A stretch of 64,000 bases of DNA from Ferrimonas sp. YFM (GTDB lineage: Bacteria > Pseudomonadota > Gammaproteobacteria > Enterobacterales > Shewanellaceae): contig NZ_AP027368.1 in the NCBI RefSeq assembly GCF_030296015.1, positions 4,202,839 to 4,266,838 of the forward strand. Direction: 5' to 3'. The translations under genes were made by a program, and so were the position numbers. Below the pieces are notes generated by a model. The model ran no database searches, was not told the DNA's origin, and saw only the letters and a program-made list of their open reading frames with translations. Position 1 is the first letter of the stretch; every line of letters begins with the position of its first letter. Positions 46,430-58,482 of this stretch are shown piece by piece.

Positions 46430-47128
46430 TCACTTGCCAGAGGCTTTCATCAGCTCCTTGAAGCGAGCTTTGGCTGCGGCTTCATCCTGCCACTCCCGCA
46501 GAGAATCGGGGTCTGGACACCTGAGTTCTTTGCAGATCAATTGATTGGGATTTCCACCCGGGAAACACTCCGGATTGGTCTGGAACAGCGCCAACATGGC
46601 GCCATAGTGGCCCACGCCCAACGCCGGGGCCGTCTCCCGGGCCATGCTCCAGAAAGAGCGCCCCTCCATGGGGCAGAGCTTCAGCTCCTGCTTACGAAGC
46701 TTCGGCTTGGGCGCCACCTCGGTAGCCTTGGCCACGGAGGCATCCTGAGCCACCTTGCGCGTCACCGTAGGTGCCCCACCGGAGGCGGGTTCCAGGTCGA
46801 TATTGAAATAGATCAGCTTGTCCGGCTCATCCTGAAACAGGCTGGTGACCACCACCTGGATGCGTGAACCCCGGGCAGGCACTTGTGAGTGCAGGTGGAT
46901 AAGGAAGTCGCCATCCATCTGCCGGGCCAGGGGGTAACGGTTGCCGTTCTGCAGCAGATAGAAACGCAATTGCTGCACCACGAAGGGATCGCCAACGACA
47001 TTCATGGTCAGGTTGAGTGGCTCATTGGAGCGGGACACCACCTGGTTCACACTCAGGTGATCCACCTTCTGAGCCGCCGACGCCACGCTAGCCCAACACA
47101 GCAGTGCCAGGAGCAAACCTCTGACCAT
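46430..47128 (-). CDS. FimV-like periplasmic protein with LysM-like segment
   Basis: A 232-residue protein with a signal peptide (VRGLLLALLCWASVASA, cleavage near 18). Residues about 25-125 resemble the FimV/HubP N-terminal domain (HLSVNQVVSRSNEPLNLTM). A short charged linker follows, then about 160-215 read SFWSMARETAPALGVGHYGA and MLALFQTNPECFPGGNPNQL, which mirror the LysM/FimV pattern for peptidoglycan binding. It lacks the long acidic cytoplasmic TPR part and has no transmembrane helix, so it is not a true polar landmark protein. The start at 47128 has TCGGAGGACAAT. Confidence 0.65.
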   Translation of the reverse strand: MVRGLLLALLCWASVASAAQKVDHLSVNQVVSRSNEPLNLTMNVVGDPFVVQQLRFYLLQNGNRYPLARQMDGDFLIHLHSQVPARGSRIQVVVTSLFQDEPDKLIYFNIDLEPASGGAPTVTRKVAQDASVAKATEVAPKPKLRKQELKLCPMEGRSFWSMARETAPALGVGHYGAMLALFQTNPECFPGGNPNQLICKELRCPDPDSLREWQDEAAAKARFKELMKASGK

Positions 47129-47150
47129 ATTGTCCTCCGAGTTGACCGAA

Positions 47151-48509
47151 TTAGCCCGCCAGCACCTGCCTGGCCTGCTCGATATCAAACTCCGACTCCA
47201 CCTTCAGATAGGCGGCCTGCTGATCCAGGATCAGGGTCACCTCGGCGACACCGGCCAGAGTCAGCAATCTGCCCGCCAGCGCCTGGGCGTGGGCGTCATC
47301 ATTGATATGAGCATCCATGGTAATGCTCTTAACGGACTTGGGATTTTTCAGTCCCAGCATGGGGACAAACCAAATAAGGGTCAAGCCTGCACACACCAGG
47401 AACACCCCTTCGGCACCAAAGATGGTGTACATGCCACCACCGATGGAGCCACCGAAGAAGGCCCCCATAAACTGGCTGGTGGAGTAGATCCCCATGGCGG
47501 AGCCCTTATCCCCGGCGGGGCTCAGGCGGGAGATCAACGTCGGCAGGGACGCTTCCAGATAGTTGAAGCCGGTGAAGAACACCAGGGTGGCCGCACCCAG
47601 CACCCACAGGTTGTGGTGGGCTGAAGCCATGATCAGCATGGACGCCGCCAGCAGCAGCATCGCCATCAGGAAGGGACGACGGCTGTCCTGCTTGCGCACC
47701 GAGTAGATGATCATCGGCGCCATAAACACGAAAGACAGCAGCAGGGCCGGCAGGTACAGCATCCAGTGAGAGGTGGCTTCCAGGCCGCTGTCGACCACGA
47801 CGATGGGCAGGGCCACGAACAGGGCGCACATGATGAAGTGCAGGGCGAAGATGCTGATGTCCAGGCGAACCAGCTGGCCATGCTTGAGCATCTTCAGGAA
47901 GCGCTTGGGCACCGCCACCACGTCGCCGGTGGGCGCCTGACGCACCGCGTTGGGCACCAGGCCATGCACCACCAGCAGGGCGGCGGAGGCCAGCACTGCG
48001 GTCAGGTAGAACAGGCCGGAGAGGCCCATGGTGTCAGCCAGCGCCGGGCCGGCCACCAGGCTGATGGCAAACGCCAGGCCGATGAAGGAGCCGATCACCG
48101 CCATCACCTTGGGGCGCTGCTCTTCTCGGGTCAGATCCGAGGCCAGAGCCAGCACCGCTGAGGCCACCGCGCCCATGCCTTGCAGGGCACGGCCAACGGT
48201 CACCATCTGAATCGATTCGGCCATGCCGGCCACCAGGCTGCCGAGGATAAACAGGATCAGACCTATAGTAATCACCGGCTTGCGGCCAATCTTGTCGGAC
48301 AGCATCCCCGCCGGGATCTGCAGCAGCGCCTGAGTCAGGCCATAGCCACCGATGGCCAGGCCCACCCACATAGGGGAGAAGCCTTCCAGGTGCTGGCCGT
48401 AGATCGCCAGCACCGGCATGATCAGGAACAGACCAAACATCCGCAGCCCATACACGCTGGCCAGGGTAAAGGCCGCTCTGCGTTCAGTTGGGTTTAACCC
48501 ATTACTCAC
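47151..48509 (-). CDS. yajR: MFS transporter, YajR type, with C-terminal YAM domain
   Basis: A 452-residue major-facilitator protein with twelve membrane segments over about 1-395. The conserved motif A, GMLSDKIGRKPV, lies near residue 67. The soluble C-terminal tail (about 398-452, starting MDAHINDDAHAQALAG) matches the ferredoxin-like YAM domain of E. coli YajR. The substrate is unknown; YajR relatives are proton-driven exporters. It is encoded 22 bases upstream of the FimV-like gene and divergent from uvrA. Confidence 0.88.
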   Translation of the reverse strand: MSNGLNPTERRAAFTLASVYGLRMFGLFLIMPVLAIYGQHLEGFSPMWVGLAIGGYGLTQALLQIPAGMLSDKIGRKPVITIGLILFILGSLVAGMAESIQMVTVGRALQGMGAVASAVLALASDLTREEQRPKVMAVIGSFIGLAFAISLVAGPALADTMGLSGLFYLTAVLASAALLVVHGLVPNAVRQAPTGDVVAVPKRFLKMLKHGQLVRLDISIFALHFIMCALFVALPIVVVDSGLEATSHWMLYLPALLLSFVFMAPMIIYSVRKQDSRRPFLMAMLLLAASMLIMASAHHNLWVLGAATLVFFTGFNYLEASLPTLISRLSPAGDKGSAMGIYSTSQFMGAFFGGSIGGGMYTIFGAEGVFLVCAGLTLIWFVPMLGLKNPKSVKSITMDAHINDDAHAQALAGRLLTLAGVAEVTLILDQQAAYLKVESEFDIEQARQVLAG

Positions 48510-48725
48510 AATCTACTTCCTCAAAATCGTTGTTTTTCTCGGCGCCAGAGGGGCGACAGTTTAACAGAGCTTCGCCACCTTCACAGAGTCGATTCGGCAC
48601 TGATTGTCCCACTCTTCCGAAAACACGCCTTTACAATGCAGATTAAGACCATCGATTTCCTTGAAGTGCCCTGCCAATAGAGAATATGCGATACTGCTCA
48701 AATTCTTTTTCCAACCGGCAGCATC

Positions 48726-51560
48726 ATGGATCAGATTGACGTTCGCGGCGCCCGCACCCACAACCTGAAAAACATCTCCCTGACCCTACCCCGAGACCAA
48801 CTTATTGTGATTACCGGCCTATCCGGCTCAGGTAAGTCGTCTCTGGCGTTCGATACCCTGTACGCCGAAGGTCAGCGGCGCTACGTGGAATCCCTCTCCG
48901 CCTACGCCCGTCAGTTCCTGTCGCTGATGGAGAAGCCGGATGTGGACCACATTGAGGGGCTGTCCCCGGCGATCTCCATCGAGCAGAAGTCCACCTCCCA
49001 CAACCCGCGTTCCACCGTGGGCACCATCACCGAGGTGTATGACTACCTGCGTCTGCTGTTTGCCCGGGTGGGTGAGCCCCGCTGCCCCACTCACGGCCAG
49101 CCTCTGGCAGCTCAGACTGTCAGCCAGATGGTGGATAAGGTGTTGAGCCTGCCAGAAGGCAGCAAACAGATGCTGCTGGCCCCCGTAGTGCAGGGACGTA
49201 AAGGCGAACACACCAAGCTGCTGGAAGGCCTGGCGGCCCAAGGCTACATCCGTGCCCGCATCGACGGCGAGGTGTGCGACCTGTCCGATCCACCGCCGCT
49301 GGAACTGCACGTCAAACACGACATCGAAGTGGTGATCGACCGCTTCAAGGTGCGCCCGGACCTGGCCCAGCGCCTGGCCGAGTCTTTCGAAACCGCCCTG
49401 GAGCTGTCCGGCGGCGTAGTCAAAGTGGCGGCCATGGACGACGCCGATGCCGAGCCGCTGGTGTTCTCCGCCAACTTCGCCTGCCCCATCTGTGGCTACG
49501 CCATGGCCGAGCTGGAACCGCGCATCTTCTCCTTCAACAACCCCGCCGGGGCCTGCACCAGCTGCGACGGCCTGGGGGTTCAGCAGTTCTTCGACGAGCA
49601 GCGAGTCGTCACCAACCCCACCGCCTCCCTGGCCGAAGGCGCCATTCGCGGCTGGGACAAGCGCAACTTCTACTACTACCAGATGCTCAAGTCCCTGGCC
49701 GAGCACTATAAGTTCGACTTGGACGAGCCCTTCGAAGACCTGCCTAAAAAGGCACGGGACGTGATTCTTAATGGCTCCGGCCGCACCAGCATCGCCTTCA
49801 AGTACGTCAACGACCGCGGTGATGTGGTCACCCGTAACCACCCCTTCGAGGGGATCCTCAACAACATGAACCGCCGCTACAAGGAGACCGAATCCAACTC
49901 GGTGCGCGAGGAGCTGACCAAATACATCAGCACCACCAAGTGCCGCAGCTGTGATGGCTCCCGCCTGAGGGAGGAGGCGCGCAATGTGTTCATCGAGGAC
50001 ATCAACCTGCCGATTCTGTCGGAGTGGTCCATCGGCCAGGCGCTGGAGTGGTTCAGCAGCATCGAACTGCAGGGCCAGCGGGCGCAGATTGCCGAGAAGG
50101 TGCTCAAGGAGATCAACGACCGTCTGGGCTTCCTGGTGAACGTGGGCCTGAACTACCTGACCCTTCACCGCTCCGCCGAAACCCTCTCCGGCGGTGAAGC
50201 CCAGCGTATCCGCCTGGCCAGCCAGATTGGTGCCGGCCTAGTGGGGGTAATGTACGTACTGGATGAGCCCTCCATCGGTCTGCACCAGCGGGACAACGAG
50301 CGACTGCTGGCCACCCTTACCCACCTGCGGGATCTGGGCAACACGGTGATCGTGGTGGAACACGACGAAGACGCCATCCGCACCGCCGACCACATCGTGG
50401 ACATTGGCCCTGGTGCCGGCGTTCATGGCGGCCAGGTGGTGGCCCAGGGCGACTACAAGGCGATCTGCAATAGTAAGGACTCACTCACCGGCCAGTACCT
50501 GTCTGGCAAGAAACAAATTGCCGTACCCGAGGAGCGTACCCCCTACAACGCCAAGAAGGTCATCGAGCTGACCGGCGCCCGCGGCAACAACCTGAAGAAC
50601 GTGGATCTGACCATCCCCTGTGGCCTGATGACCTGCGTCACCGGCGTGTCCGGCTCAGGCAAGTCCACCCTGATCAACGACACCTTCTACAAGATTGCTC
50701 ACAAGGAACTTAACGGTGCCACCGTGGATGAACCGGCGCCGTACACCGCCGTCAAGGGGCTGAACAACTGCGACAAGGTGGTGGACATTGACCAGAGCCC
50801 CATCGGTCGCACCCCACGTTCCAACCCGGCCACCTACACCGGCATCTTCACCCCCATCCGTGAGCTGTTCTCCGGCACCCATGAAGCCCGCTCCCGTGGC
50901 TACAAACCGGGGCGCTTCTCCTTCAACGTCCGCGGCGGCCGCTGCGAGGCGTGTCAAGGGGATGGTGTAATCAAGGTAGAGATGCACTTCCTGCCGGACG
51001 TGTACGTGCCCTGTGACCAGTGTAAGGGCAAGCGCTACAACCGCGAGACCCTGGAAGTGCACTACAAGGGCAAGAACATCAACCAGGTGCTGGAGATGAC
51101 CGTCGAAGAAGCCCGCGAGTTCTTCGACCCGGTGCCCGCCATCGCCCGTAAGCTGCAGACCCTGATGGACGTGGGCCTGTCCTACATCCGCCTGGGTCAG
51201 TCGGCCACCACCCTCTCCGGCGGTGAAGCCCAGCGGGTAAAACTGGCCCGGGAGCTGTCCAAGCGCGACACCGGCAAGACCCTGTACATCCTGGATGAGC
51301 CCACCACCGGCCTGCACTTCCAAGACATCCAGCTGCTGCTGGACGTACTGCACCGCCTGCGCGACCACGGCAACACCGTGGTGGTGATTGAGCACAACCT
51401 GGACGTCATAAAGACTGCCGACTGGATTGTGGATCTGGGCCCAGAAGGCGGCTCCGGCGGCGGCGAGATTCTGGTGCACGGCACCCCGGAAGAGGTGGCG
51501 GTTCACAAAGAATCCCACACCGCCCGCTTCCTCAAGCCGATGCTGCCCAAGCTGGCGTAA
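48726..51560 (+). CDS. uvrA: Excinuclease ABC subunit A
   Basis: A 944-residue nucleotide-excision repair ATPase that detects DNA damage with UvrB. It has two ABC cassettes, with Walker [15 protein letters not shown] at about 31-44 and [13 protein letters not shown] near 640-652, and two signature sequences ([14 protein letters not shown] and [14 protein letters not shown]). Zinc modules are [16 protein letters not shown] near 255-280 and [17 protein letters not shown] near 740-770. It is close to E. coli UvrA along its length. No canonical LexA box is obvious in the 216-base upstream gap. A terminator follows. Confidence 0.98.
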
Positions 51561-51582
51561 GCACCAACCACGCATTGACGAC

Positions 51583-51612
51583 AAAGGCCCAGTCAACGAG
51601 ACTGGGCCTTTT
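51583..51612 (+). terminator. uvrA: Intrinsic terminator after uvrA
   Basis: AAAGGCCCAGTC-AACGA-GACTGGGCCTTTT followed by CTTTTT, 22 bases after the uvrA stop. Confidence 0.92.
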
Positions 51613-51636
51613 CTTTTTCAGAGCACAGCAACCACA

Positions 51637-51903
51637 GTGAAACCCGACTGCCGCACCGCCATGGCCCAACTGATTGAACAGGTGAGGGACGCCTTCCCCT
51701 TCGGCGTGCCCGAAGCTGAGATCTGTGGCGACACCTGCGTAGGCTGCCCAAAGAAACTGTTGGAACTGGTGGACACTGAGCTGTGCGACTGGGAAGCCCG
51801 ACTAGAACACGGCGAAACACCCAAGCTGGGGGACATCTCCCGTCTGGCGAAGCTGTGTAAGAACGTGTATCGGGGATTGAAGCGGAATAAGCTAGTTACC
51901 TAA
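51637..51903 (+). CDS. Small conserved Cys-rich hypothetical protein
   Basis: An 88-residue cytoplasmic protein. It has a cysteine cluster CGDTCVGCPKKLLELVD near residues 31-47, plus Cys in KPDCRTAM, WEAR-adjacent LCDWE and LAKLCKN. The spacing could bind a metal or an iron-sulfur cluster, but no known site is matched. I chose the GTG at 51637 because the family-like KPDCRTAM stretch is then included. The ATG at 51661 would give 80 residues. The start overlaps the end of the uvrA terminator region by a few bases, so it probably has its own promoter or read-through supply. Confidence 0.65.
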   Translation: MKPDCRTAMAQLIEQVRDAFPFGVPEAEICGDTCVGCPKKLLELVDTELCDWEARLEHGETPKLGDISRLAKLCKNVYRGLKRNKLVT

Positions 51904-51931
51904 TGTCTATCCAAGAGTAAAGCTAACACAC

Positions 51932-52015
51932 TTAAGGCGCTAAAAAGTAAGCCAAGCACATCACTATAGTTCCAAAAACAAAGCCCAGAGCGAAAAAAGA
52001 TAATGCAATCTTCAT
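51932..52015 (-). CDS. 27-residue single-span membrane peptide (bacteriocin cluster)
   Basis: A 27-residue ORF, MKIALSFFALGFVFGTIVMC then LAYFLAP, with a strong ribosome binding site (GAGG, five bases before the ATG). It is almost all hydrophobic and forms a single membrane helix starting after Lys2. It lies 48 bases after the zinc-ribbon gene on the same strand, at the end of the bacteriocin-like cluster. Very short membrane peptides often act as immunity, toxin or regulatory partners, but no family can be assigned. It is too short for standard gene finders. Confidence 0.55.
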   Translation of the reverse strand: MKIALSFFALGFVFGTIVMCLAYFLAP

Positions 52016-52063
52016 CCAAACCTCATAACAACAAAAAACTATCCAGAGAAACTTTAAATAAAA

Positions 52064-52363
52064 TTAATCAACTTCGCTCGAATCAAAAGATCTTAGCCCC
52101 ATAATGGGCTCAAAGAGTTTCATAACTGCAAACGCAAAAGCATAACCTATAGCGCTGGCAGTCGCAGGATCTACATACTCTTTCAAAAAAAAGTAGACTC
52201 CAAGACTGACTACCGTCCCTATAGTAAATCCTGATAAAATCGCGTACCGTAATCTTGACGCTAGTATCTGGCAGCATGAGGGACAATTAATATATTCTCG
52301 CCAAGCTAAAGGCCACCTATCTTTGAAATGCAATTTCACGTTGCAATTAGGACACCTATACAT
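52064..52363 (-). CDS. Zinc-ribbon membrane protein, candidate immunity/accessory protein
   Basis: A 99-residue protein that starts MYRCPNCNVKLHFKD and has a CxxC...CxxC zinc ribbon (CPNC and CPSC, 19 residues apart), similar to the TIGR04104-type putative zinc finger. Two membrane segments follow, AILSGFTIGTVVSLGVYFF (about 45-63) and ASAIGYAFAFAVMKLFEPIM (about 71-90), then an acidic tail. The ATG at 52363 has GGAG six bases away and is preferred to 52375. It is the gene immediately after the two double-glycine peptide genes, the usual place for an immunity gene. That role is inferred. Confidence 0.65.
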   Translation of the reverse strand: MYRCPNCNVKLHFKDRWPLAWREYINCPSCCQILASRLRYAILSGFTIGTVVSLGVYFFLKEYVDPATASAIGYAFAFAVMKLFEPIMGLRSFDSSEVD

Positions 52364-52376
52364 TTCACGCTCCATT

Positions 52377-52397
52377 CAAGGGCCTTAACGGCCCTTG
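52377..52397. other. Hairpin between peptide A and the zinc-ribbon gene
   Basis: CAAGGGCC-TTAAC-GGCCCTTG, a perfect 8-bp stem with a 5-base loop. On the minus strand it is not followed by a T-run, so it may attenuate or stabilise the peptide transcript rather than terminate it. On the plus strand TATTGTTTTT follows it. Confidence 0.7.
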
Positions 52398-52405
52398 TAT
52401 TGTTT

Positions 52406-52555
52406 TTAGTCCTTTTTAAAGAACTCTTCTAGTGCTTTCCAAGCTTTTTTTCCATACTTTCCACCGATAACAGCACCGGCGATGGCTGCAGCTCCCAAAA
52501 GTACTGGATGACCACCTACGACCTTCTTGAATTCGTGAGAAGATAATTCAACCAT
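52406..52555 (-). CDS. Double-glycine leader peptide A (microcin/bacteriocin precursor)
   Basis: A 49-residue precursor read directly from the DNA. The leader is MVELSSHEFKKVVGG, 15 residues, with L-12, E-8, F-7, V-4, G-2, G-1. The mature 34-residue peptide starts HPVLLGAAAIAGAVIGGKYG and ends KKAWKALEEFFKKD. Its N-terminal half is a hydrophobic Ala/Gly helix with a GxxxG motif (GAVIG). The C-terminal half is an amphipathic Lys-rich helix, with net charge about +3. It has no Cys. The ribosome binding site AGGAGAGG lies five bases before the ATG, and the start overlaps the peptide B stop as TAATG. A C39 ABC exporter is encoded upstream. This is a strong candidate for half of a two-peptide bacteriocin. 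Confidence 0.85.
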   Translation of the reverse strand: MVELSSHEFKKVVGGHPVLLGAAAIAGAVIGGKYGKKAWKALEEFFKKD

Positions 52556-52734
52556 TAGTCCTCTCCTATCGCAGATTTAAAAAACTCAGTACCAAATCCA
52601 GCCGCAAAGCTCTGAGAAAACACTCTTACAATAGATGAGGCACGATACAGGTGCACAGCACCAACTCCAACCCAATAAAGTGCAACAAACCCACCAGTCA
52701 CACTTTGCATTTCTGCTTTGCTAAGTTTTTCCAC
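52555..52734 (-). CDS. Double-glycine leader peptide B (microcin/bacteriocin precursor)
   Basis: A 59-residue precursor with a GTG start. The leader is MEKLSKAEMQSVTGG (GTG read as Met), with L-12, E-8, M-7, V-4, G-2, G-1, the same pattern as peptide A. The mature 44-residue peptide starts FVALYWVGVGAVHLYRASSI and ends EFFKSAIGED, with no Cys and about neutral net charge. It carries GVG, AAGFG and other small-residue motifs that suit helix packing. The ribosome binding site is AAGGA, six bases before GTG. An out-of-frame ATG at about 52756 leads only to a short meaningless frame. Its stop is coupled to the peptide A start. Confidence 0.83.
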   Translation of the reverse strand: MEKLSKAEMQSVTGGFVALYWVGVGAVHLYRASSIVRVFSQSFAAGFGTEFFKSAIGED

Positions 52735-52767
52735 AATTTATCCTTACCTACGTCCATGTTGAGATAA

Positions 52768-52804
52768 GCTTAGTTAGTAATACTAGTCTGCTAACCAACT
52801 AAGC
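52768..52804. other. Inverted repeat upstream of the peptide genes
   Basis: GCTTAGTT at 52768-52775 pairs perfectly with AACTAAGC at 52797-52804 across a 21-base loop. It lies 34 bases before the peptide B start and after the exporter stop. It may be an operator or an RNA hairpin that separates exporter and peptide expression. Confidence 0.55.
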
Positions 52805-52851
52805 ACCAGTACAGAGGTTCGAACACCCCTGATTTAGGCCCCCGAAGGCAC

Positions 52852-54996
52852 CTAAATTCCTTTTAGAGAAAAAATTTCATCGAAAGTGTCAATCTCCGTT
52901 ATACCACCATCATCAACCTTCAATATTCTGGTAGCATTCCTAACTGTTTCCAATCGGTGAGATATAACGACTCTGGTAATCGGCAACCTGTCAATCTGAT
53001 TACATATACTCGTTTCGTTTTCCAAATCTAAGTGACTAGTAGCCTCATCCAAAAACAAGACTTTTGGACGTTTGTACAAAGCCCGAGCGAGCAAAATCCG
53101 TTGAACTTGGCCACCTGAAAATTGACTTCCCATATCTCCAACTAAACTGCTATACCCCATCGGCAACTTTTGTATATCATTATCAACGGACGCAATCTGA
53201 GCACACTTTTGCATCCATAGCATGTTCGGCTCAGGATCAAAAAATGTTATGTTATCTGCCACAGAACCAGTAAGAAGTGTGTCATCCTGCATAACTGCAG
53301 CAACCTCCGTCCGAAAACGCCTAGTGCCAAGCCCTCGGATCTCTACTCCATCCAAATAGATACTTCCGGCATTTGGCTCCAAGAGCCCAAGGAGCAACTT
53401 CATCAACGTTGTTTTTCCACTTCCTGACGGCCCGACAAGCGCAACATGCTCTCCCGGCAAAACATCAAAATCTAACTGATCAAATAAAAGTGATTCTGAT
53501 GAATCATAACCATATGTCAGACCACGAACTCTTAAGCCGCCCTGAGCCCGCTCTAAAGTATCCGTTCCTTCCCTATGTTTCTCTTCTTCAGCCAAAGCAA
53601 TATCTGAGATCCGCTCAATGTGTAACCTTAACATCCTGAAGATAATTAGTTGTTCGAGAAAGTTGGAAGCACGCTGGGTAAGTTGCTCTTTATAAGCCAT
53701 GTAGGCCAAAACCATTCCAACACTCAAGCCTCCACCCATTACTGCGAGTGCCGCAACATAAACTACGACTACATTCTCTATTCCAAATAGTAATTTATTG
53801 GCAGAATCGAAGCTGATTTCTAATTTCCCCAATCTAATATCCGCATTGATTACTTCTGAGTACTGGTTCTGCCAAAGGTTTTGCCTCTGAGACTCTCGCC
53901 CAAACAACTTAATTGTTTGTATTCCTCGAATGCTCTCCAAAAAGGTACTTTGCTCTGCTGCGGAAGCTCGTATAGACTCCTCTGTGGTCCTTTTCAAAGA
54001 GCGATATAGAGCTAGTCTTAAGATGGCATAAAGGCAAACAGCGGCTAAAACGATGAAGGTTAGTCTAACATCATAAACAAACATCACAATCAAGACTGTA
54101 AGTACCATTATCCCATCAACAAATGTTTCAACTAGTCCTGTAGTCAACCTTTCTCGTATCTGAGCTAAAGAACCAAATCTAGAAACCAAATCCCCTATGT
54201 GCCTGGACTCGAAAAAATTCATCGGAAGCCGAAGAAGATGATGAAGTAGGTTTACACCCAGGTAAAAATTAAACTGAGCAGACAGCCTCACGATTAACCA
54301 ACTACGGATGACTGAGATAATTACATTTATAAGCACCAACAAAGAGAACCCTATTGCAAGCACTTTCAAAAGAGATGTATCTCTACTTAATAGTACTTCA
54401 TCAACCACCCACTGCATATAGTAAGGCGACAATAATGAAAGCAACTGAATTAGTAAAGTCATGGCAAGAAGAGAAACTAAGCTTCTCTTAAAACCAACCA
54501 TTTTGGTCCAAAGCTGATTCAACGCCATTCTTTCTCGGTCATCTTTACGTGTAAAATCGGCCGTTGGCGTGAGCTCCAGTGCAATCCCGGTAAAATGCTC
54601 TGCAAACTCGTTTAACTTCATTTGCTTCCGGCCTGTAGCAGGGTCAATTAGAGTGACCACAGCTTTACTGGCTTTGCTCAACACAACAAAATGGTTCATA
54701 TCCCAATGAATTACACATGGAGTTTTTAACTTACCAATCTCCTCCAATGGACATTTCAGCGCTCTGCTTGCCAATCCCAACGAGTCAGCAACCTCTACCA
54801 TCTCCTGAAGGTTCATTCCTTTCAGATTAGCTTTAAATCTCCTCCTCATCGCTGGGAGATCAACCTTTCTCCCAAAGTAACTGGCTACCATGGCAAGGCA
54901 GGCCAAGCCACACTCCGCGACTTCAGCTTGAAGGATCACCGGTACTCGCCTTATGCCGCTAAAATCCAGAGAGACTGTACTTACAGCATCAGACAT
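52852..54996 (-). CDS. Peptidase-containing ABC exporter (C39 domain, CvaB-like)
   Basis: A 714-residue exporter that cleaves double-glycine leaders and exports the mature peptide. The N-terminal C39 peptidase domain has the catalytic triad C29 (AEVAECGLACLAM), H102 (WDMNHFVVL) and D118 (LIDPATGRK), with the oxyanion Gln at 23, so it should be active. Six membrane segments follow over about 165-445. The ATPase domain has Walker A GPSGSGKTTLMK near 535, signature FSGGQVQRILLARA, Walker B VLFLDEATSHLD and the H-loop VISHRLET. The start shares one base with the adaptor stop (TGATG). The DNA is AT-rich with many rare-type codons for this genome. Confidence 0.95.
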   Translation of the reverse strand: MSDAVSTVSLDFSGIRRVPVILQAEVAECGLACLAMVASYFGRKVDLPAMRRRFKANLKGMNLQEMVEVADSLGLASRALKCPLEEIGKLKTPCVIHWDMNHFVVLSKASKAVVTLIDPATGRKQMKLNEFAEHFTGIALELTPTADFTRKDDRERMALNQLWTKMVGFKRSLVSLLAMTLLIQLLSLLSPYYMQWVVDEVLLSRDTSLLKVLAIGFSLLVLINVIISVIRSWLIVRLSAQFNFYLGVNLLHHLLRLPMNFFESRHIGDLVSRFGSLAQIRERLTTGLVETFVDGIMVLTVLIVMFVYDVRLTFIVLAAVCLYAILRLALYRSLKRTTEESIRASAAEQSTFLESIRGIQTIKLFGRESQRQNLWQNQYSEVINADIRLGKLEISFDSANKLLFGIENVVVVYVAALAVMGGGLSVGMVLAYMAYKEQLTQRASNFLEQLIIFRMLRLHIERISDIALAEEEKHREGTDTLERAQGGLRVRGLTYGYDSSESLLFDQLDFDVLPGEHVALVGPSGSGKTTLMKLLLGLLEPNAGSIYLDGVEIRGLGTRRFRTEVAAVMQDDTLLTGSVADNITFFDPEPNMLWMQKCAQIASVDNDIQKLPMGYSSLVGDMGSQFSGGQVQRILLARALYKRPKVLFLDEATSHLDLENETSICNQIDRLPITRVVISHRLETVRNATRILKVDDGGITEIDTFDEIFSLKGI

Positions 54997-56240
54997 CAGC
55001 CGATCCTCCCTTTCAGGCTATAAATGGGATCGAGTAGCCACTGCATCAGCGATCGGCGTTCTAAGATAATGTCAGCTTCGAGTAACATCCCACTTCTAAG
55101 GGGAATAGCCTGACCATAGGCATCGATGCTTTGTTTAGGTAGAACTGCTCGAACGCGGTAAAAAGATTCTCCTAAATTAATCGGTAGTCGAACATCGTGG
55201 GAGGTTAAAATCGCCTTGTCTACTTGACTAACGGTAGACTCAACAGAGCCAAATCGTTGGTAAGGAAATGCATCAAACCTGAGCCTTGTAAGAGCACCGT
55301 TCTTAACAAATCCTACTGAGCGGCTCGGGAGCAACAATTCTGCGACCAAAACTGCTCCCTCCGGCAAAATACTAAGCAAAGCCACTCCTGACTTTAAGAA
55401 CTCTCCGTTGGAAATACGAATTGCGGTAACTACTCCAGAAGTAGTGGCACGAATTACGTATCGAAATCGATTCTCCACCTCTTTCTGCTGGCGAAGAAGC
55501 GATACACGACGCCTATCCAACTCTACCTGTTCCAGTTGGCTTCGCTCCGGAAGGTCTGCTAACTTCAGCTCAGTCTGATTTTGCTTCATTCTTACATTAG
55601 CAATGTCGGACTCAGCCTGTTCTACAGCATGGCGAACAAGTAGCAGTTGCTCTTTCTGACTCTGGTATTCAACGTGTGAAATAAACTGCTCTTTATATAA
55701 AGATTCAGTTCTTGCGAACAACTTGGTTTTCAGTGACAGCCTTTGGAGCAAAGTTTTTCTTTGACTCTGAAGGGTATTTAAGTATAGCTCTAGCGACTTT
55801 GATTCTTCATGCAGTTTATTTTCCTCTAACTCCATTACTTTATTTCTTTTATCCCTTTCTCTCCGAATCAGTACCAGCCGCTGTGAAATCTCTTCAGTCA
55901 AGGAATGCTCCAATTCTCCTCCCGACGCTAAAGAACGGACTTTAGAAATAGTCACCAAGGGCTGGCCCTTACGAATGATTTCACCTTCTTTAACATGCAG
56001 TCGCCAAACGGAACCTGCCCCATCAGCAAAAACATTGACCATTCCTTTGTCCGGCTTAAGATAGCCTTTCACCGTCTCTTTTCGCGCATAGTCTGACATC
56101 GCAATAAAGATCCCCACCAACAAGACAAGGCAAACCAAAGTCGCAGCCAACACATGCAGTGACAAAGGTTGGGAAAGCCAAACCTCGCCTTGCAGGCGCT
56201 TTCCTTGCGCCTCGACAGCCTGACGACGAAAAAGAGACAT
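54996..56240 (-). CDS. HlyD/CvaA-type adaptor for the bacteriocin exporter
   Basis: A 414-residue membrane-fusion protein that should connect the C39 exporter to a TolC-type channel. It has an N-terminal cytoplasmic tail and a membrane segment (VLAATLVCLVLLVGIFIAMS, about 30-49). A half-lipoyl motif GSVWRLHVKEGEIIRKGQPL lies near 75-94, and a long coiled coil at about 105-250 rich in Leu, Arg and Glu follows. The second half-lipoyl is TTSGVVTAIRISNGEFLKSG near 266-285, then the barrel domain. It is the first gene of the AT-rich cluster. No TolC gene is present here, so the housekeeping TolC must serve. Confidence 0.93.
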   Translation of the reverse strand: MSLFRRQAVEAQGKRLQGEVWLSQPLSLHVLAATLVCLVLLVGIFIAMSDYARKETVKGYLKPDKGMVNVFADGAGSVWRLHVKEGEIIRKGQPLVTISKVRSLASGGELEHSLTEEISQRLVLIRRERDKRNKVMELEENKLHEESKSLELYLNTLQSQRKTLLQRLSLKTKLFARTESLYKEQFISHVEYQSQKEQLLLVRHAVEQAESDIANVRMKQNQTELKLADLPERSQLEQVELDRRRVSLLRQQKEVENRFRYVIRATTSGVVTAIRISNGEFLKSGVALLSILPEGAVLVAELLLPSRSVGFVKNGALTRLRFDAFPYQRFGSVESTVSQVDKAILTSHDVRLPINLGESFYRVRAVLPKQSIDAYGQAIPLRSGMLLEADIILERRSLMQWLLDPIYSLKGRIG

Positions 56241-56294
56241 ACGTTCAACCTCCGCTCAGAATCACATCGAACTTGCATCGAATTTAGCAGTGGT

Positions 56295-56326
56295 ATTTGT
56301 GACGATTAGAGTAATCACAAATTATC
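56295..56326 (-). promoter_or_regulatory. Operator-like dyad over the -10 of the bacteriocin export operon
   Basis: ATTTGTGA-12 bases-TCACAAAT at 56295-56302/56315-56322 is a perfect 8-bp inverted repeat. A -10-like GATAAT (minus strand, 56326-56321) abuts it. Several further TTGTGA/TCACA half-sites lie at about 56352-56390. The 324-base gap 56241-56564 otherwise holds the two divergent promoters and no ORF that I can support. Confidence 0.5.
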
Positions 56327-56564
56327 ACCTGATGACCTCTCCTCAATTTCGTTGTGATTAATTGTGACGTACGATGCGCATCACATATATGACTAAATTT
56401 CCCTCTATAGCTCAGACACATACATTTCGACAACAAAGCTCAGTCAAATTGGATACAAGGCCCAACTGCCCCTCCTCTTTGGACTTTATAGGTATATCCC
56501 TACTGCGGTTCGACGACTAAAATCGACTCATCCTTACCCTACTCTCGACCAAAAAGGACCCTGG

Positions 56565-56825
56565 ATGCGCCCGTTTGAGCGTCTGCTCGCTGTGATGTTG
56601 TGGCTGGAAGTCGCTGTGGCTCCGGCTTTGCTGTGTGCATTGCTGGGCAGTGTCTATTGCATCATCGCCGATCACTTGGAACTGACTTTGGTGGGTTGGT
56701 GGGCATTAGCAGGGTTGGTGCCTGGAGTGATTGCCGCCGAGTACATTCGGCGCACCCGGGGGTTGGTGATGCCCATTGCCAACTGCCTGCCTGGTGCTGA
56801 AGGTAAGAAGCGCAGGCTTAGTTAG
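56565..56825 (+). CDS. Small membrane protein of unknown function
   Basis: An 86-residue protein with two membrane segments (LAVMLWLEVAVAPALLCALL, about 8-27, and LVGWWALAGLVPGVIAAEYI, about 42-61) and a basic C-terminal tail. The ribosome binding site AAAGGACCCTGG precedes the ATG. No family is recognised. It is divergent from the bacteriocin export operon and ends seven bases before the convergent CAP-domain gene. It is GC-rich like the core genome, so it marks the edge of the AT-rich island. Confidence 0.7.
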   Translation: MRPFERLLAVMLWLEVAVAPALLCALLGSVYCIIADHLELTLVGWWALAGLVPGVIAAEYIRRTRGLVMPIANCLPGAEGKKRRLS

Positions 56826-56831
56826 ACACTG

Positions 56832-57365
56832 CTATTCGAATGGTGCGGCGAATACCTGCACCCAGTAAAAGCGATACTCGGTCCCCGGATTAGCCACACA
56901 AGCAAATCCTGTTTCTTTGTACTCCGCCGCCATCAGATTTTTACAATGCTCCGGGCTGGCCAGCCATTCCTCTATAGCTATCCCCACCTTGGGTTGCCCT
57001 GCCGCGATATTCTCGCCAACCAACTGCCAGCGGTAACCATAAGCCCACACTCGCTGGCCCACATCACTGCCATCATGGCCGGTATGACTTAAGAAATCGT
57101 GGGCAGCCATGTTGTAAGCGTGTTCAAAGGCGGCATGTTCCAAGAGCGGGTTTGGTTTCAAAAGATCTACGGGCTTCATGTAGAGGTCGCCGCAATTGGC
57201 TCCTTTGATGCGAACGGCGTTGATTTGTCGAAGAAGGTTGTCGAGATTCTCGGTGCAGGGAAGATAACGAATCGTCGTCTTTTCCTGTGGGCCATCGTCA
57301 GCCATGGTCTGGTCAAAGAGATTTAACCCCGAGGCCATCACAACGGCACTCAGCAACCCGTTCAT
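56832..57365 (-). CDS. CAP/SCP-domain extracellular protein (YkwD-like)
   Basis: A 177-residue protein with a CAP (SCP/PR1) domain at about 50-175. The key motifs are HAYNMAAHDFLSHTGHDG, GYRWQLVGENIAAG and WLASPEHCKNLMAAEYKETG, with the usual His, Glu and His residues. Four Cys could form disulfides. The N-terminus MNGLLSAVVMASGLNLF is hydrophobic and could be a weak signal peptide. A GTG at 57377 is an alternative start, and the frame is open to 57554, which overlaps the divergent RluA gene and is unlikely. Bacterial CAP proteins are secreted; the function is unknown. Confidence 0.8.
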   Translation of the reverse strand: MNGLLSAVVMASGLNLFDQTMADDGPQEKTTIRYLPCTENLDNLLRQINAVRIKGANCGDLYMKPVDLLKPNPLLEHAAFEHAYNMAAHDFLSHTGHDGSDVGQRVWAYGYRWQLVGENIAAGQPKVGIAIEEWLASPEHCKNLMAAEYKETGFACVANPGTEYRFYWVQVFAAPFE

Positions 57366-57528
57366 TGGAGCTTGCACATCTGTCCCCCATCCAATACCAA
57401 TACCAATACCATCCCAATTGTAGCCCCTCCTCCAGTTCACTATGGATTGCCCTATTTGGCCTAGGCAGCCATCAGTTTTGGTTGTCTGTCCTTTCGGGTA
57501 CACTGCCCCCACTTCAGGAGGACACTCT

Positions 57529-58482
57529 TTGACCACCAGCTTCAACGACACCATTACCCCCAGCGATTCAGGCCAGCGCCTGTATGGCTTTTTGCGCGCT
57601 CGATTCCCCTATCTGAATCAGCAAACCTGGCAAGCCTTCGTCGATGAGAGCGCGGTTTGTGTTGATGGTGTTCAGGCCGAAGGGGACCCCGTGCTTGAAG
57701 CGGGGCAACGGCTGAGCTATCGCATCGGTGATTACTTCGAGTCCCCGGTGGACACCGGCTGGAAACTGCTGTGGCAGTGCGAGGAGATCATCGCGGTACA
57801 CAAGCCCCATGGCCTGCCGGTCAGCCGCACCACCCGCAACATCATCAACACCTTGGTGGCGCTGGTGCGCCGCGAGAGCGACTGGCCCGATGCCCACCTG
57901 CTGCATCGGTTGGACTTGGAAACCGGCGGCATCGTATTGCTGGGCAAAGACAAGGCCGCCGCCAGCCGCTGGCAACCCAGGTTGAAGGAGCTGATGCTGC
58001 GCAAGGTCTACCACGCGGTTGTGTGTGGCTTGCCTGATTGGGAGCAACAGGAGTTGGAGTGCCGCCTGGGCACCAGAGAGGACAGCCCCATTCGCTGCCA
58101 GATGCATGTGTGTGGGGATGACGAGAAGGGCAAACTGAGCCACACCAAATTCCGGGTGCTGGCCAGAGGTGAAAATTGCGCCCTGGTGGAGTGCGAACTT
58201 GTGACCGGCCGTAAACACCAGATCCGCGCCCACTTGGCGCACCTGGGCCATCCCATTGTCGGCGATAAGATCTATTCCAATAATGGCGACTACTACCTGA
58301 AACGACTGGAAGATGCGGTCACCGACGCCGATGAGCTCGCCCTGGGCGCCCCTCACCACCTGCTGTTGGCCAAAGAGGTAACCATAAACAATTGCCCAGG
58401 CAGTGAGCAAGTGCTTACCAACCCTCACCATTCCGAGGCTTGGCGACAGTTCTGCCAGACGAAGGGACTGCCCCTGCTCTAG
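57529..58482 (+). CDS. RluA-family RNA pseudouridine synthase
   Basis: A 317-residue pseudouridine synthase. The catalytic Asp is in HRLDLETGGIVLLGKD near residue 120, and the conserved late motif is TGRKHQIRAHLAHLGHPIVG near 230-250. The N-terminal part at about 10-75 resembles an S4-like region. The start is TTG at 57529, set by AGGAGG seven bases upstream; the frame is open to 57442 but has no ribosome binding site. The substrate RNA cannot be read from sequence. A bidirectional terminator lies just downstream. Confidence 0.88.
   Translation: MTTSFNDTITPSDSGQRLYGFLRARFPYLNQQTWQAFVDESAVCVDGVQAEGDPVLEAGQRLSYRIGDYFESPVDTGWKLLWQCEEIIAVHKPHGLPVSRTTRNIINTLVALVRRESDWPDAHLLHRLDLETGGIVLLGKDKAAASRWQPRLKELMLRKVYHAVVCGLPDWEQQELECRLGTREDSPIRCQMHVCGDDEKGKLSHTKFRVLARGENCALVECELVTGRKHQIRAHLAHLGHPIVGDKIYSNNGDYYLKRLEDAVTDADELALGAPHHLLLAKEVTINNCPGSEQVLTNPHHSEAWRQFCQTKGLPLL

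What the first reader, a model, noticed from the sequence alone, without database searches (positions are those of the whole stretch)
51932..56240. AT-rich cluster encoding a probable two-peptide double-glycine bacteriocin/microcin with its own C39 exporter
Seen: on one strand, in order, a HlyD/CvaA-type adaptor, an ABC exporter with complete C39 triad (C29, H102, D118), two tiny genes whose products begin with 15-residue double-glycine leaders, a zinc-ribbon protein with two membrane spans, and a 27-residue membrane peptide. Known: C39 exporters cut after GG leaders and export class II microcins and bacteriocins. Inference: an antibacterial system that is easily missed, because both peptide genes are below usual ORF cut-offs and one starts with GTG. 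Two coupled, sequence-unrelated, unmodified peptides are typical of Gram-positive class IIb and would be unusual in a Gammaproteobacterium.
Basis: partly seen in the sequence, partly recalled or inferred. Interest (0 to 1): 0.93.

Follow-up and report, generated by a model that had tools for sequence, protein, structure and literature searches.

The report
Marine microcin-like peptides with zinc-ribbon partner
A marine bacterium carries a small exchangeable gene cassette that looks like a secreted antibacterial peptide system: two tiny peptides, the pump that would cut and export them, and a zinc-binding membrane protein that probably protects the producer; the type is known, but I found no described family for the peptides or their protector.

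Summary
In detail: HlyD adaptor, C39 ABC exporter (C29/H102/D118), two double-glycine peptides (59 and 49 aa; predicted mature 44 and 34) and a zinc-ribbon protein with two hydrophobic helices, in that order on one strand. A leader detector finds only these two peptides in 64 kb.

Relatives show a real cassette. PepA (core VALYWVGVGAV-AYR-VRFVSQ) was found in 12 genomes. The zinc-ribbon gene lies directly behind the peptide gene(s) in 11 of 12, and all 12 hold a C39 exporter of this type (one with an in-frame stop). Among close relatives PepA is under purifying selection (dN/dS 0.08-0.13 in 5 of 6 pairs). In one species PepA is broken and the zinc-ribbon gene intact, as expected of immunity. 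Against G009, the relative with the most similar exporter, an 850-bp peptide/partner segment is cleanly swapped. A stem-loop separates peptide and zinc-ribbon genes in 11 of 11 loci folded.

The class IIb reading is only partly supported: 8 of 12 genomes show PepA without PepB, and the window's PepA lacks GxxxG. Two-peptide double-glycine toxins are already known in Gram-negatives (Cdz). New variant of a known kind; activity untested.

The parts
54996..56240 (-). HlyD/CvaA-type periplasmic adaptor, 414 aa
   Evidence: HlyD_3 E=2.1e-13, HlyD_D23 E=4.3e-12; a homologue lies within 2 kb of the exporter in all 20 related loci fetched
52852..54996 (-). C39 peptidase-containing ABC exporter, 714 aa, triad C29/H102/D118
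   Evidence: Pfam, triad and motifs, 20 relatives at 45-90% identity
52555..52734 (-). pepA: double-glycine precursor, 59 aa (GTG start), predicted mature peptide 44 aa
   Evidence: leader detector and Markov control; family found in 12 genomes; dN/dS 0.08-0.13 in 5 of 6 pairs among four close copies from other genera, not including the window's own copy
52406..52555 (-). pepB: double-glycine precursor, 49 aa, predicted mature peptide 34 aa with GxxxGxxxG; start codon shares one base with the pepA stop
   Evidence: similar peptides in L021, in L077 (no standard start codon) and weakly in L082
52376..52408 (-). stem-loop between pepB and the zinc-ribbon gene, -16.1 kcal/mol, z=-5.3; possible leaky terminator or processing site (no T-run after it on the operon strand in the window)
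   Evidence: a stem-loop of different sequence at the same place in 11 of 11 loci folded
52064..52375 (-). zinc-ribbon protein with two hydrophobic helices, 103 aa; candidate immunity protein
   Evidence: directly behind the peptide gene(s) in 11 of 12 PepA genomes; model pLDDT 74.6; TIGR04104 match below its cut-off
51932..52015 (-). 27-aa hydrophobic ORF, inside the swapped segment; no conservation seen
   Evidence: no family match
51899..52748 (.). exchangeable cassette: segment with no aligned counterpart in G009, bounded by 94% and 87% identical flanks

Best explanation
It is a class II microcin-like (double-glycine bacteriocin) locus with an exchangeable cargo/immunity cassette. PepA and PepB are made as precursors; the C39 domain of the exporter is expected to cut after the two glycines and the ABC-HlyD pair, with a TolC-type outer-membrane protein encoded elsewhere, to export the mature 44- and 34-residue peptides (inferred from family knowledge). 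PepA is a conserved, membrane-active-looking peptide that most likely harms the inner membrane of close relatives (inferred). The zinc-ribbon protein most likely sits in the inner membrane and protects the producer from PepA-type peptides (inferred from association and retention). A stem-loop between the peptide genes and the protector probably sets more peptide than protector mRNA (inferred, weaker in the window). PepB is probably an accessory or partner peptide added to a PepA-protector core in some lineages.
For: Only two GG-leader ORFs found in 64 kb, both behind the exporter. Two search directions gave the same association. (1) Searching 394 order genomes with zinc-ribbon profile A1 matched 17 genomes besides the two in the profile; 4 of these 17 loci lie beside GG peptides, including the three best (E below 1e-6). 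(2) Scanning the 84,980-species collection with one PepA pattern gave 10 loci, 9 with the zinc-ribbon gene next to it, of which six loci were new. With L068 and the window this makes 11 of 12 genomes. All 12 hold a C39 exporter of this type, also where the cassette stands alone (the Rheinheimera copy has one in-frame stop). PepA: 5 of 6 close pairs dN/dS 0.08-0.13, the sixth with two silent and no amino-acid changes. Broken pepA with intact zinc-ribbon gene in Alteromonas lipotrueiana. Cargo segment swapped between flanks of 94% and 87% identity; empty site in G005. Leaders alike, cores unlike: mean pairwise identity 0.50 against 0.26 over 19 cargo peptides picked by hand. Stem-loop in 11 of 11 gaps folded. 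TolC-type OEP genes present.
Against: No activity, export or immunity was measured. GG peptides with a C39 peptidase need not kill competitors: the Neisseria nap peptides showed no antimicrobial activity and act in autolysis (PMC11798529, abstract and section 5 read). Generic zinc-ribbon proteins of similar layout are common and not near GG peptides: 0 of 24 and 0 of 21 weak-hit loci, partly the same places; two of these (L052, L053) scored better with profile A1 than L054, which is near GG peptides. Rheinheimera has a PepA-like and a PepB-like peptide without the zinc-ribbon protein. One zinc-ribbon pair shows more amino-acid than silent changes (5 against 1). About a fifth of ordinary gaps fold as stably as the weakest stem-loop (5 of 23). 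The PepA model is of low confidence (pLDDT 59.9). The window's own pepA and pepB could not be tested for selection.
Confidence: 0.72

Rival explanations
1. True class IIb two-peptide bacteriocin: PepA and PepB are one toxin, both needed, with the zinc-ribbon protein as shared immunity. (A narrower form of the best explanation, so the odds overlap.)
For: One-base overlap of stop and start; PepA+PepB+zinc-ribbon order kept in Ferrimonas aestuarii and, with a second frame lacking a standard start codon, in Thalassotalea; adjacent GG pairs recur; PepB has tandem GxxxG; the zinc-ribbon proteins of PepA-only loci group apart from those of PepA+PepB loci, but at support 81/93, with no branch of that tree reaching the tool's star.
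Against: No PepB-like gene seen in 8 of 12 PepA genomes; in the seven of these that were measured the peptide-to-zinc-ribbon gap is 48-59 nt, no room for one (L079); the window's PepA has no GxxxG; PepB is poorly conserved (29-43% to F. aestuarii, depending on the gapped alignment).
Confidence: 0.35
2. Two independent one-peptide bacteriocins sharing one exporter, PepB with its own protector (for instance the 27-aa membrane ORF).
For: Related loci hold several peptide-plus-membrane-protein units in a row (L020, L077); PepA stands alone with the zinc-ribbon gene elsewhere; the 27-aa ORF lies in the swapped segment.
Against: No counterpart of the 27-aa ORF was seen elsewhere; behind PepB in F. 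aestuarii I saw only the zinc-ribbon gene before the next transporter genes.
Confidence: 0.25
3. Not antibacterial: the peptides act on the producer's own population (autolysis, signalling, biofilm), and the zinc-ribbon protein is a receptor or regulator.
For: Precedent of nap peptides in Neisseria; zinc-ribbon proteins are often regulatory (general knowledge).
Against: Cargo swapped beside a conserved exporter, loss of peptide with retention of partner, and orphan peptide-partner cassettes fit toxin-immunity better.
Confidence: 0.15
4. The small ORFs are chance and the exporter serves another substrate.
For: Short ORFs, one with a GTG start; the GG leader is a weak motif.
Against: 0 of 3000 Markov sequences with two hits; purifying selection in relatives and conserved homologues.
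Confidence: 0.02

Closest known systems
Class II microcins (MccV, MccN, MccE492 and others) with PCAT/MFP/TolC export
   Same: Small GG-leader precursors, C39 ABC exporter, HlyD-type adaptor, small membrane protein as candidate immunity (components as listed in PMC9746304, passages read)
   Different: The window's PepA and PepB reach no curated family cut-off (one other PepA member matches E492_microcin at E=0.014); mature peptides of only 34-44 residues; a zinc-ribbon candidate protector; the main text of that survey has 0 mentions of Ferrimonas or Shewanella
Cdz (CdzC/CdzD, contact-dependent glycine-zipper proteins of Caulobacter) and Cdz-like systems
   Same: Gram-negative, type I secretion, two adjacent GG-leader peptides, small membrane protein giving immunity, glycine zipper in PepB
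   Different: The window's PepA has no glycine zipper; both precursors are below the 60-151-residue feature of the Cdz-like set (PMC5380434); CdzI is predicted with three membrane spans and no obvious homologues (passage), here a zinc ribbon plus two hydrophobic helices
Class IIb two-peptide bacteriocins (lactobin A/cerein 7B family TIGR03949; Pfam Bacteriocin_IIc PF10439)
   Same: PepA members match weakly (TIGR03949 at E<=0.1 in 8 of 10, best 0.0017; PF10439 in 6 of 10, best 7.2e-06); in the two matches whose range was shown (window, L068) they cover the leader and the first 9 and 15 residues of the core
   Different: The window's pepA is below the TIGR03949 cut-off (14 against 21.5 bits) and has no PF10439 match at E<=1; pairing is not consistent; GxxxG is lacking in the window's PepA
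Neisseria nap island
   Same: Low-GC island with several GG peptides and a C39 peptidase (PMC11798529, section 5 read)
   Different: Immunity-like gene resembles LagC, not a zinc ribbon; peptides not antimicrobial in the tests reported
TIGR04104 (cxxc_20_cxxc) zinc-finger proteins
   Same: CxxC-about 20-CxxC followed by hydrophobic stretches; 10 of 12 members match at E<=0.1, best 3.2e-07
   Different: Window protein scores 26.8 bits against a cut-off of 45; no paper in the library names the family (0 papers)

Membership tests
Class II microcin / GG-leader bacteriocin of Gram-negatives | Precursor with short double-glycine leader | tested here: met
   Both peptides; leader pattern shared with 17 other cargo peptides picked by hand, V at -4 in 19 of 19
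Class II microcin / GG-leader bacteriocin of Gram-negatives | C39 ABC exporter with catalytic triad, and membrane fusion protein | tested here: met
Class II microcin / GG-leader bacteriocin of Gram-negatives | TolC-type outer membrane protein available | tested here: met
   16 OEP (PF02321) matches in the own genome, 15 over the cut-off; which one serves this exporter is unknown
Class II microcin / GG-leader bacteriocin of Gram-negatives | Cognate immunity protein encoded next to the peptide | tested here: inconclusive
   Zinc-ribbon gene adjacent in 11 of 12 PepA genomes; protection not measured
Class II microcin / GG-leader bacteriocin of Gram-negatives | Antibacterial activity | not testable with these tools
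   Needs culture
Class IIb two-peptide bacteriocin | Two adjacent GG-leader peptide genes in one transcription unit | tested here: met
   Adjacent, one-base overlap of pepA stop and pepB start; co-transcription itself is inferred
Class IIb two-peptide bacteriocin | GxxxG motifs in both peptides (criterion recalled; [quoted passage not shown]
   PepB has two, the window's PepA none; F. aestuarii PepA has at least one
Class IIb two-peptide bacteriocin | Pairing kept in relatives | tested here: not met
   PepB-like peptide in 4 of 12 PepA genomes, one without a standard start codon and one weakly similar
Class IIb two-peptide bacteriocin | Both peptides needed for full activity | not testable with these tools
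   -
Cdz-like system | Toxins of 60-151 residues with one or two glycine zippers | tested here: not met
   59 and 49 residues; zipper only in PepB
Cdz-like system | Contact-dependent killing | not testable with these tools
   -
TIGR04104 (zinc-ribbon protein) | Score above curated cut-off of 45 bits | tested here: not met
   26.8 bits

The most novel reading that the evidence does not exclude
A previously unnamed family of Gram-negative GG bacteriocins (PepA) with a dedicated class of zinc-ribbon membrane immunity proteins, caught in the act of becoming two-peptide toxins: a one-peptide PepA-immunity core is spread over several marine genera, a second peptide has been inserted between PepA and the immunity gene in some lineages, and the immunity protein has changed with it. 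The cassette is swapped as a unit beside a resident exporter, and a stem-loop between toxin and protector tunes their ratio. If so, metal binding may be part of how the protector recognises or disarms the peptide.
Probability: 0.35. Interest if true: 0.7.

Novelty: new variant of a known kind. Interest (0 to 1): 0.52.

Why it matters
If right, it adds a peptide family and a new sort of immunity protein to Gram-negative class II bacteriocins, known from few validated cases (PMC9746304 of 2022 counts 10 class II microcins; start of abstract seen), and shifts the search from enteric to marine bacteria. Immunity proteins are hard to find by sequence (same paper, passages); a recognisable zinc-ribbon mark beside GG peptides gives a handle. 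The PepA-only and PepA+PepB lineages offer a direct test of how two-peptide toxins arise from one-peptide ones. The common GG leader and swappable cassette suggest that exporter loci in these bacteria are slots for interchangeable peptides.

Tried and rejected
Chance ORFs: rejected by the Markov control and conservation. Zinc-ribbon proteins in general as GG partners: rejected; weak-hit loci lack GG ORFs, 0 of 24 and 0 of 21, with some places in both sets; the detector missed one of six strong loci (L096, where pepA is known by homology). The gap in score between the six strong zinc-ribbon hits and the rest (44 of 394 genomes matched at E<=0.001) is circular, since the strong ones are in the profile. 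PepA in the class: 2 of 369 genomes, the window's own and one weak partial hit. In the order: 11 of 394 genomes at E<=0.01, five full-length and six with short weak hits, of which three hits in two genomes (L089, L090, L095: G442 twice, G295) are other GG-leader peptides. No match in 72,556 plasmid records. PepB profile in 60 relatives: full-length only in the window and F. aestuarii, three weak hits over the leader and the first part of the core in G008, G013 and G021. The related-loci scan used one pattern (GG[FIV]V[AS]L[YF]W[VI]), so PepA copies departing from it were not sought. Structure of the zinc-ribbon protein against solved structures: no match with E below 1. PepA model: one helix at low confidence, not interpreted. 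Sigma-70 promoter and terminator scans: no clear excess over shuffles (5 against a mean of 7.1, and 5 against 4.2). Literature: full-text searches (25, 82 and 100 gave no paper); in their listings I saw no paper on these peptides or on a zinc-ribbon bacteriocin immunity protein; most subscription papers are not in that library. Rows left out: L078 (broken pepA) and L082 (divergent) from PepA alignment A7; L075, L076, L073, L081 as copies or near-copies of rows in it; L075 and L079 from zinc-ribbon alignment A8. Background count (10 of 65 windows with a GG ORF) includes the exporter loci themselves and is not a clean null. Stem-loop control: 5 of 23 ordinary gaps at -11.9 kcal/mol or below and 4 of 23 at -15.8 or below, against 10 of 10 and 9 of 10 of the short gaps folded alike.

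Full report
What is there. On the minus strand, in order: HlyD-type adaptor (56240-54996), C39 ABC exporter (54996-52852), pepA (52734-52555, GTG start), pepB (52555-52406), zinc-ribbon protein (52375-52064) and a 27-aa ORF (52015-51932). Pfam confirms the two large proteins and the C39 triad is C29/H102/D118. The stretch is 41-44% G+C between flanks of mostly about 60%. A leader detector finds only pepA and pepB in the 64 kb; two hits never arose in 3000 Markov sequences of the same segment.

Species. That the genera named below are mostly marine and Alteromonadales-like is recalled.

Exporter loci in relatives. The exporter was sought in 60 genomes and 20 neighbourhoods were fetched; all 20 hold the adaptor within 2 kb of it. 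Counting by eye, GG-leader peptides lie near the exporter in 15 of 21 loci (window included), as one, two or more small genes with different cores; I saw none in L024, L028, L032, L033, L034 and L035. Over 19 cargo peptides chosen by hand for having GG, leaders share the pattern M-x-E-L-x-x-x-E-[LI]-x-x-V-x-G-G; mean pairwise identity is 0.50 for leaders and 0.26 for cores. So these exporters seem to serve changing cargo.

The cassette is swapped. Against G009, the relative with the most similar exporter (90%), the window aligns at 93.8% over 47,001-51,898 (47,001 being the start of the comparison) and at 87.2% over 52,749-57,227; the 850 bp between, which hold both peptides, the zinc-ribbon gene and the 27-aa ORF, have no aligned counterpart, and G009 carries another GG peptide and other small ORFs there. 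In G005 the uvrA side and the gene at 56.8-57.6 kb lie about 0.8 kb apart, against 5 kb in the window: an empty site.

PepA and the zinc-ribbon partner. Ferrimonas aestuarii has similar peptides and a similar zinc-ribbon protein in the same order. Searching 394 order genomes with the zinc-ribbon alignment A1 alone matched 17 genomes besides the two in the profile; 4 of the 17 loci lie next to GG peptides (G206, G213, G353, G362), three of them with PepA, and these include the three best scores; the next two, G412 and G312, are not near GG ORFs. Scanning the 84,980-species collection with a PepA pattern gave 10 loci: Neiella, two Salinimonas, three Alteromonas, Thalassotalea, Glaciecola, F. aestuarii and a divergent one in Rheinheimera. 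The zinc-ribbon gene directly follows the peptide gene(s) in 9 of 10, not in Rheinheimera (the Salinimonas profundi copy). With the window and G213 that is 11 of 12 genomes. In 6 of 12 the exporter is adjacent; in the others it was not seen in the stretch fetched (two of these stretches, L075 and L078, are cut by contig ends), but an exporter of this type exists elsewhere in the genome: 10 of 10 genomes tested (best copies 43-56% identical; the Rheinheimera copy has one in-frame stop), plus G000 and G002. In the 394 order genomes full-length PepA hits occur in 5, all 5 with the partner beside it.

Evidence that PepA is a gene under selection and its partner a protector. Among four close Alteromonas/Salinimonas copies, 5 of 6 pairs have dN/dS 0.08-0.13 and the sixth only two silent changes; the nine more distant pairs are saturated at silent sites. 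In Alteromonas lipotrueiana pepA has an in-frame stop in the core while the zinc-ribbon gene is intact. That is what loss of a toxin with retention of immunity looks like, though one case is not proof. Its zinc-ribbon gene gives dN/dS 0.21-0.23 against two relatives, but the pair A. indica/A. aquimaris has 5 amino-acid and 1 silent change, which does not show constraint.

Stem-loop. Between the last peptide gene and the zinc-ribbon gene each of 11 loci folded (nine PepA loci, plus L018 and L066) has a stem-loop, different in sequence; energies -13.1 to -25.0 kcal/mol, z-scores -1.88 to -5.54; in 9 of 11 at most 2 of 200 shuffles fold as well, in L065 8 and in L079 10 (the L079 stretch as folded there gives two other helices rather than the single hairpin). 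Of 23 ordinary gaps, 5 are as stable as -11.9 kcal/mol. T-rich sequence follows the stem in about half of the loci by eye (for instance L021, L065, L077, L018), but not on the operon strand of the window, where the T-run lies on the other side. A leaky terminator or processing hairpin that keeps the protector message below the toxin message is the simplest reading (inference).

One peptide or two. PepB-like peptides are in the window, in F. aestuarii, in Thalassotalea (a frame similar to the F. aestuarii one, BLASTP E=5e-14 for the single pair, but without a standard start codon) and weakly in Rheinheimera. In the other 8 genomes I saw no PepB-like gene; Glaciecola has PepA twice. In the tree the zinc-ribbon proteins of the PepA-only loci form one group (support 81/93) apart from those of PepA+PepB loci, whose own order is unresolved; no branch reached the tool's star and several rows are long. 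So PepA plus protector looks like the common core and PepB like an addition; whether it is a synergistic partner is open. Outside PepA, adjacent GG pairs recur (L018, L027, L066, two or three in L023), and two of these (L018, L066) also have zinc-ribbon proteins next to them.

What it is like, and whether it is one. It works like a class II microcin or GG bacteriocin: leader, C39 exporter and adaptor are shown, TolC-type proteins are present; immunity and killing are inferred. It is not filed as class IIb: pairing is not kept and the window's PepA lacks GxxxG. It is not filed as Cdz-like: size and zipper features fail for PepA. Family libraries give only leader-level or sub-threshold matches for the window's small proteins. 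Two-peptide GG toxins in Gram-negatives are known from Caulobacter (PMC5380434, section 13 read, passages), so that part is not new; the zinc-ribbon partner and the PepA family are what I did not find described (searches listed under Tried and rejected).

Verdict. Real, functional-looking, best read as an exchangeable microcin-like cassette with a zinc-ribbon immunity protein (0.72). New variant of a known kind; interest 0.52.

Noticed in passing
L026 10165-12765 and 12922 onward: A lanthionine synthetase (DUF4135 E=1.6e-63 and LANC_like E=9.5e-18) and a GG-leader peptide with several cysteines stand behind a related C39 exporter in G050: the same exporter type seems to serve a class II lanthipeptide as well.
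   Followed up: partly
L020 10839-13240 (exporter strand): Three GG peptides with an identical 20-residue leader and different cores, with small membrane proteins between them, in a row behind one exporter: looks like repeated capture of cargo units.
   Followed up: no
L019 12966-13577 (exporter strand): Four GG-leader ORFs of 34-53 aa in a row about 2 kb behind the exporter, a dense peptide array.
   Followed up: no
window 52409-52555 (PepB), L018, L023, L027, L082: Several otherwise unlike mature peptides begin with H, N or M followed by proline and hydrophobics right after the GG; may be a second loose family or a processing need.
   Followed up: partly
L066 7600-7773: The first GG peptide of a pair next to a zinc-ribbon gene weakly matches Pfam MccV (E=0.0011, 20 bits, below the cut-off of 27).
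   Followed up: no
window 56832-57554: The neighbouring gene, which looks like a CAP/SCP-domain secreted protein (name recalled, no call), matches in 7 of 14 genus genomes including the own and marks the far side of the insertion site.
   Followed up: partly
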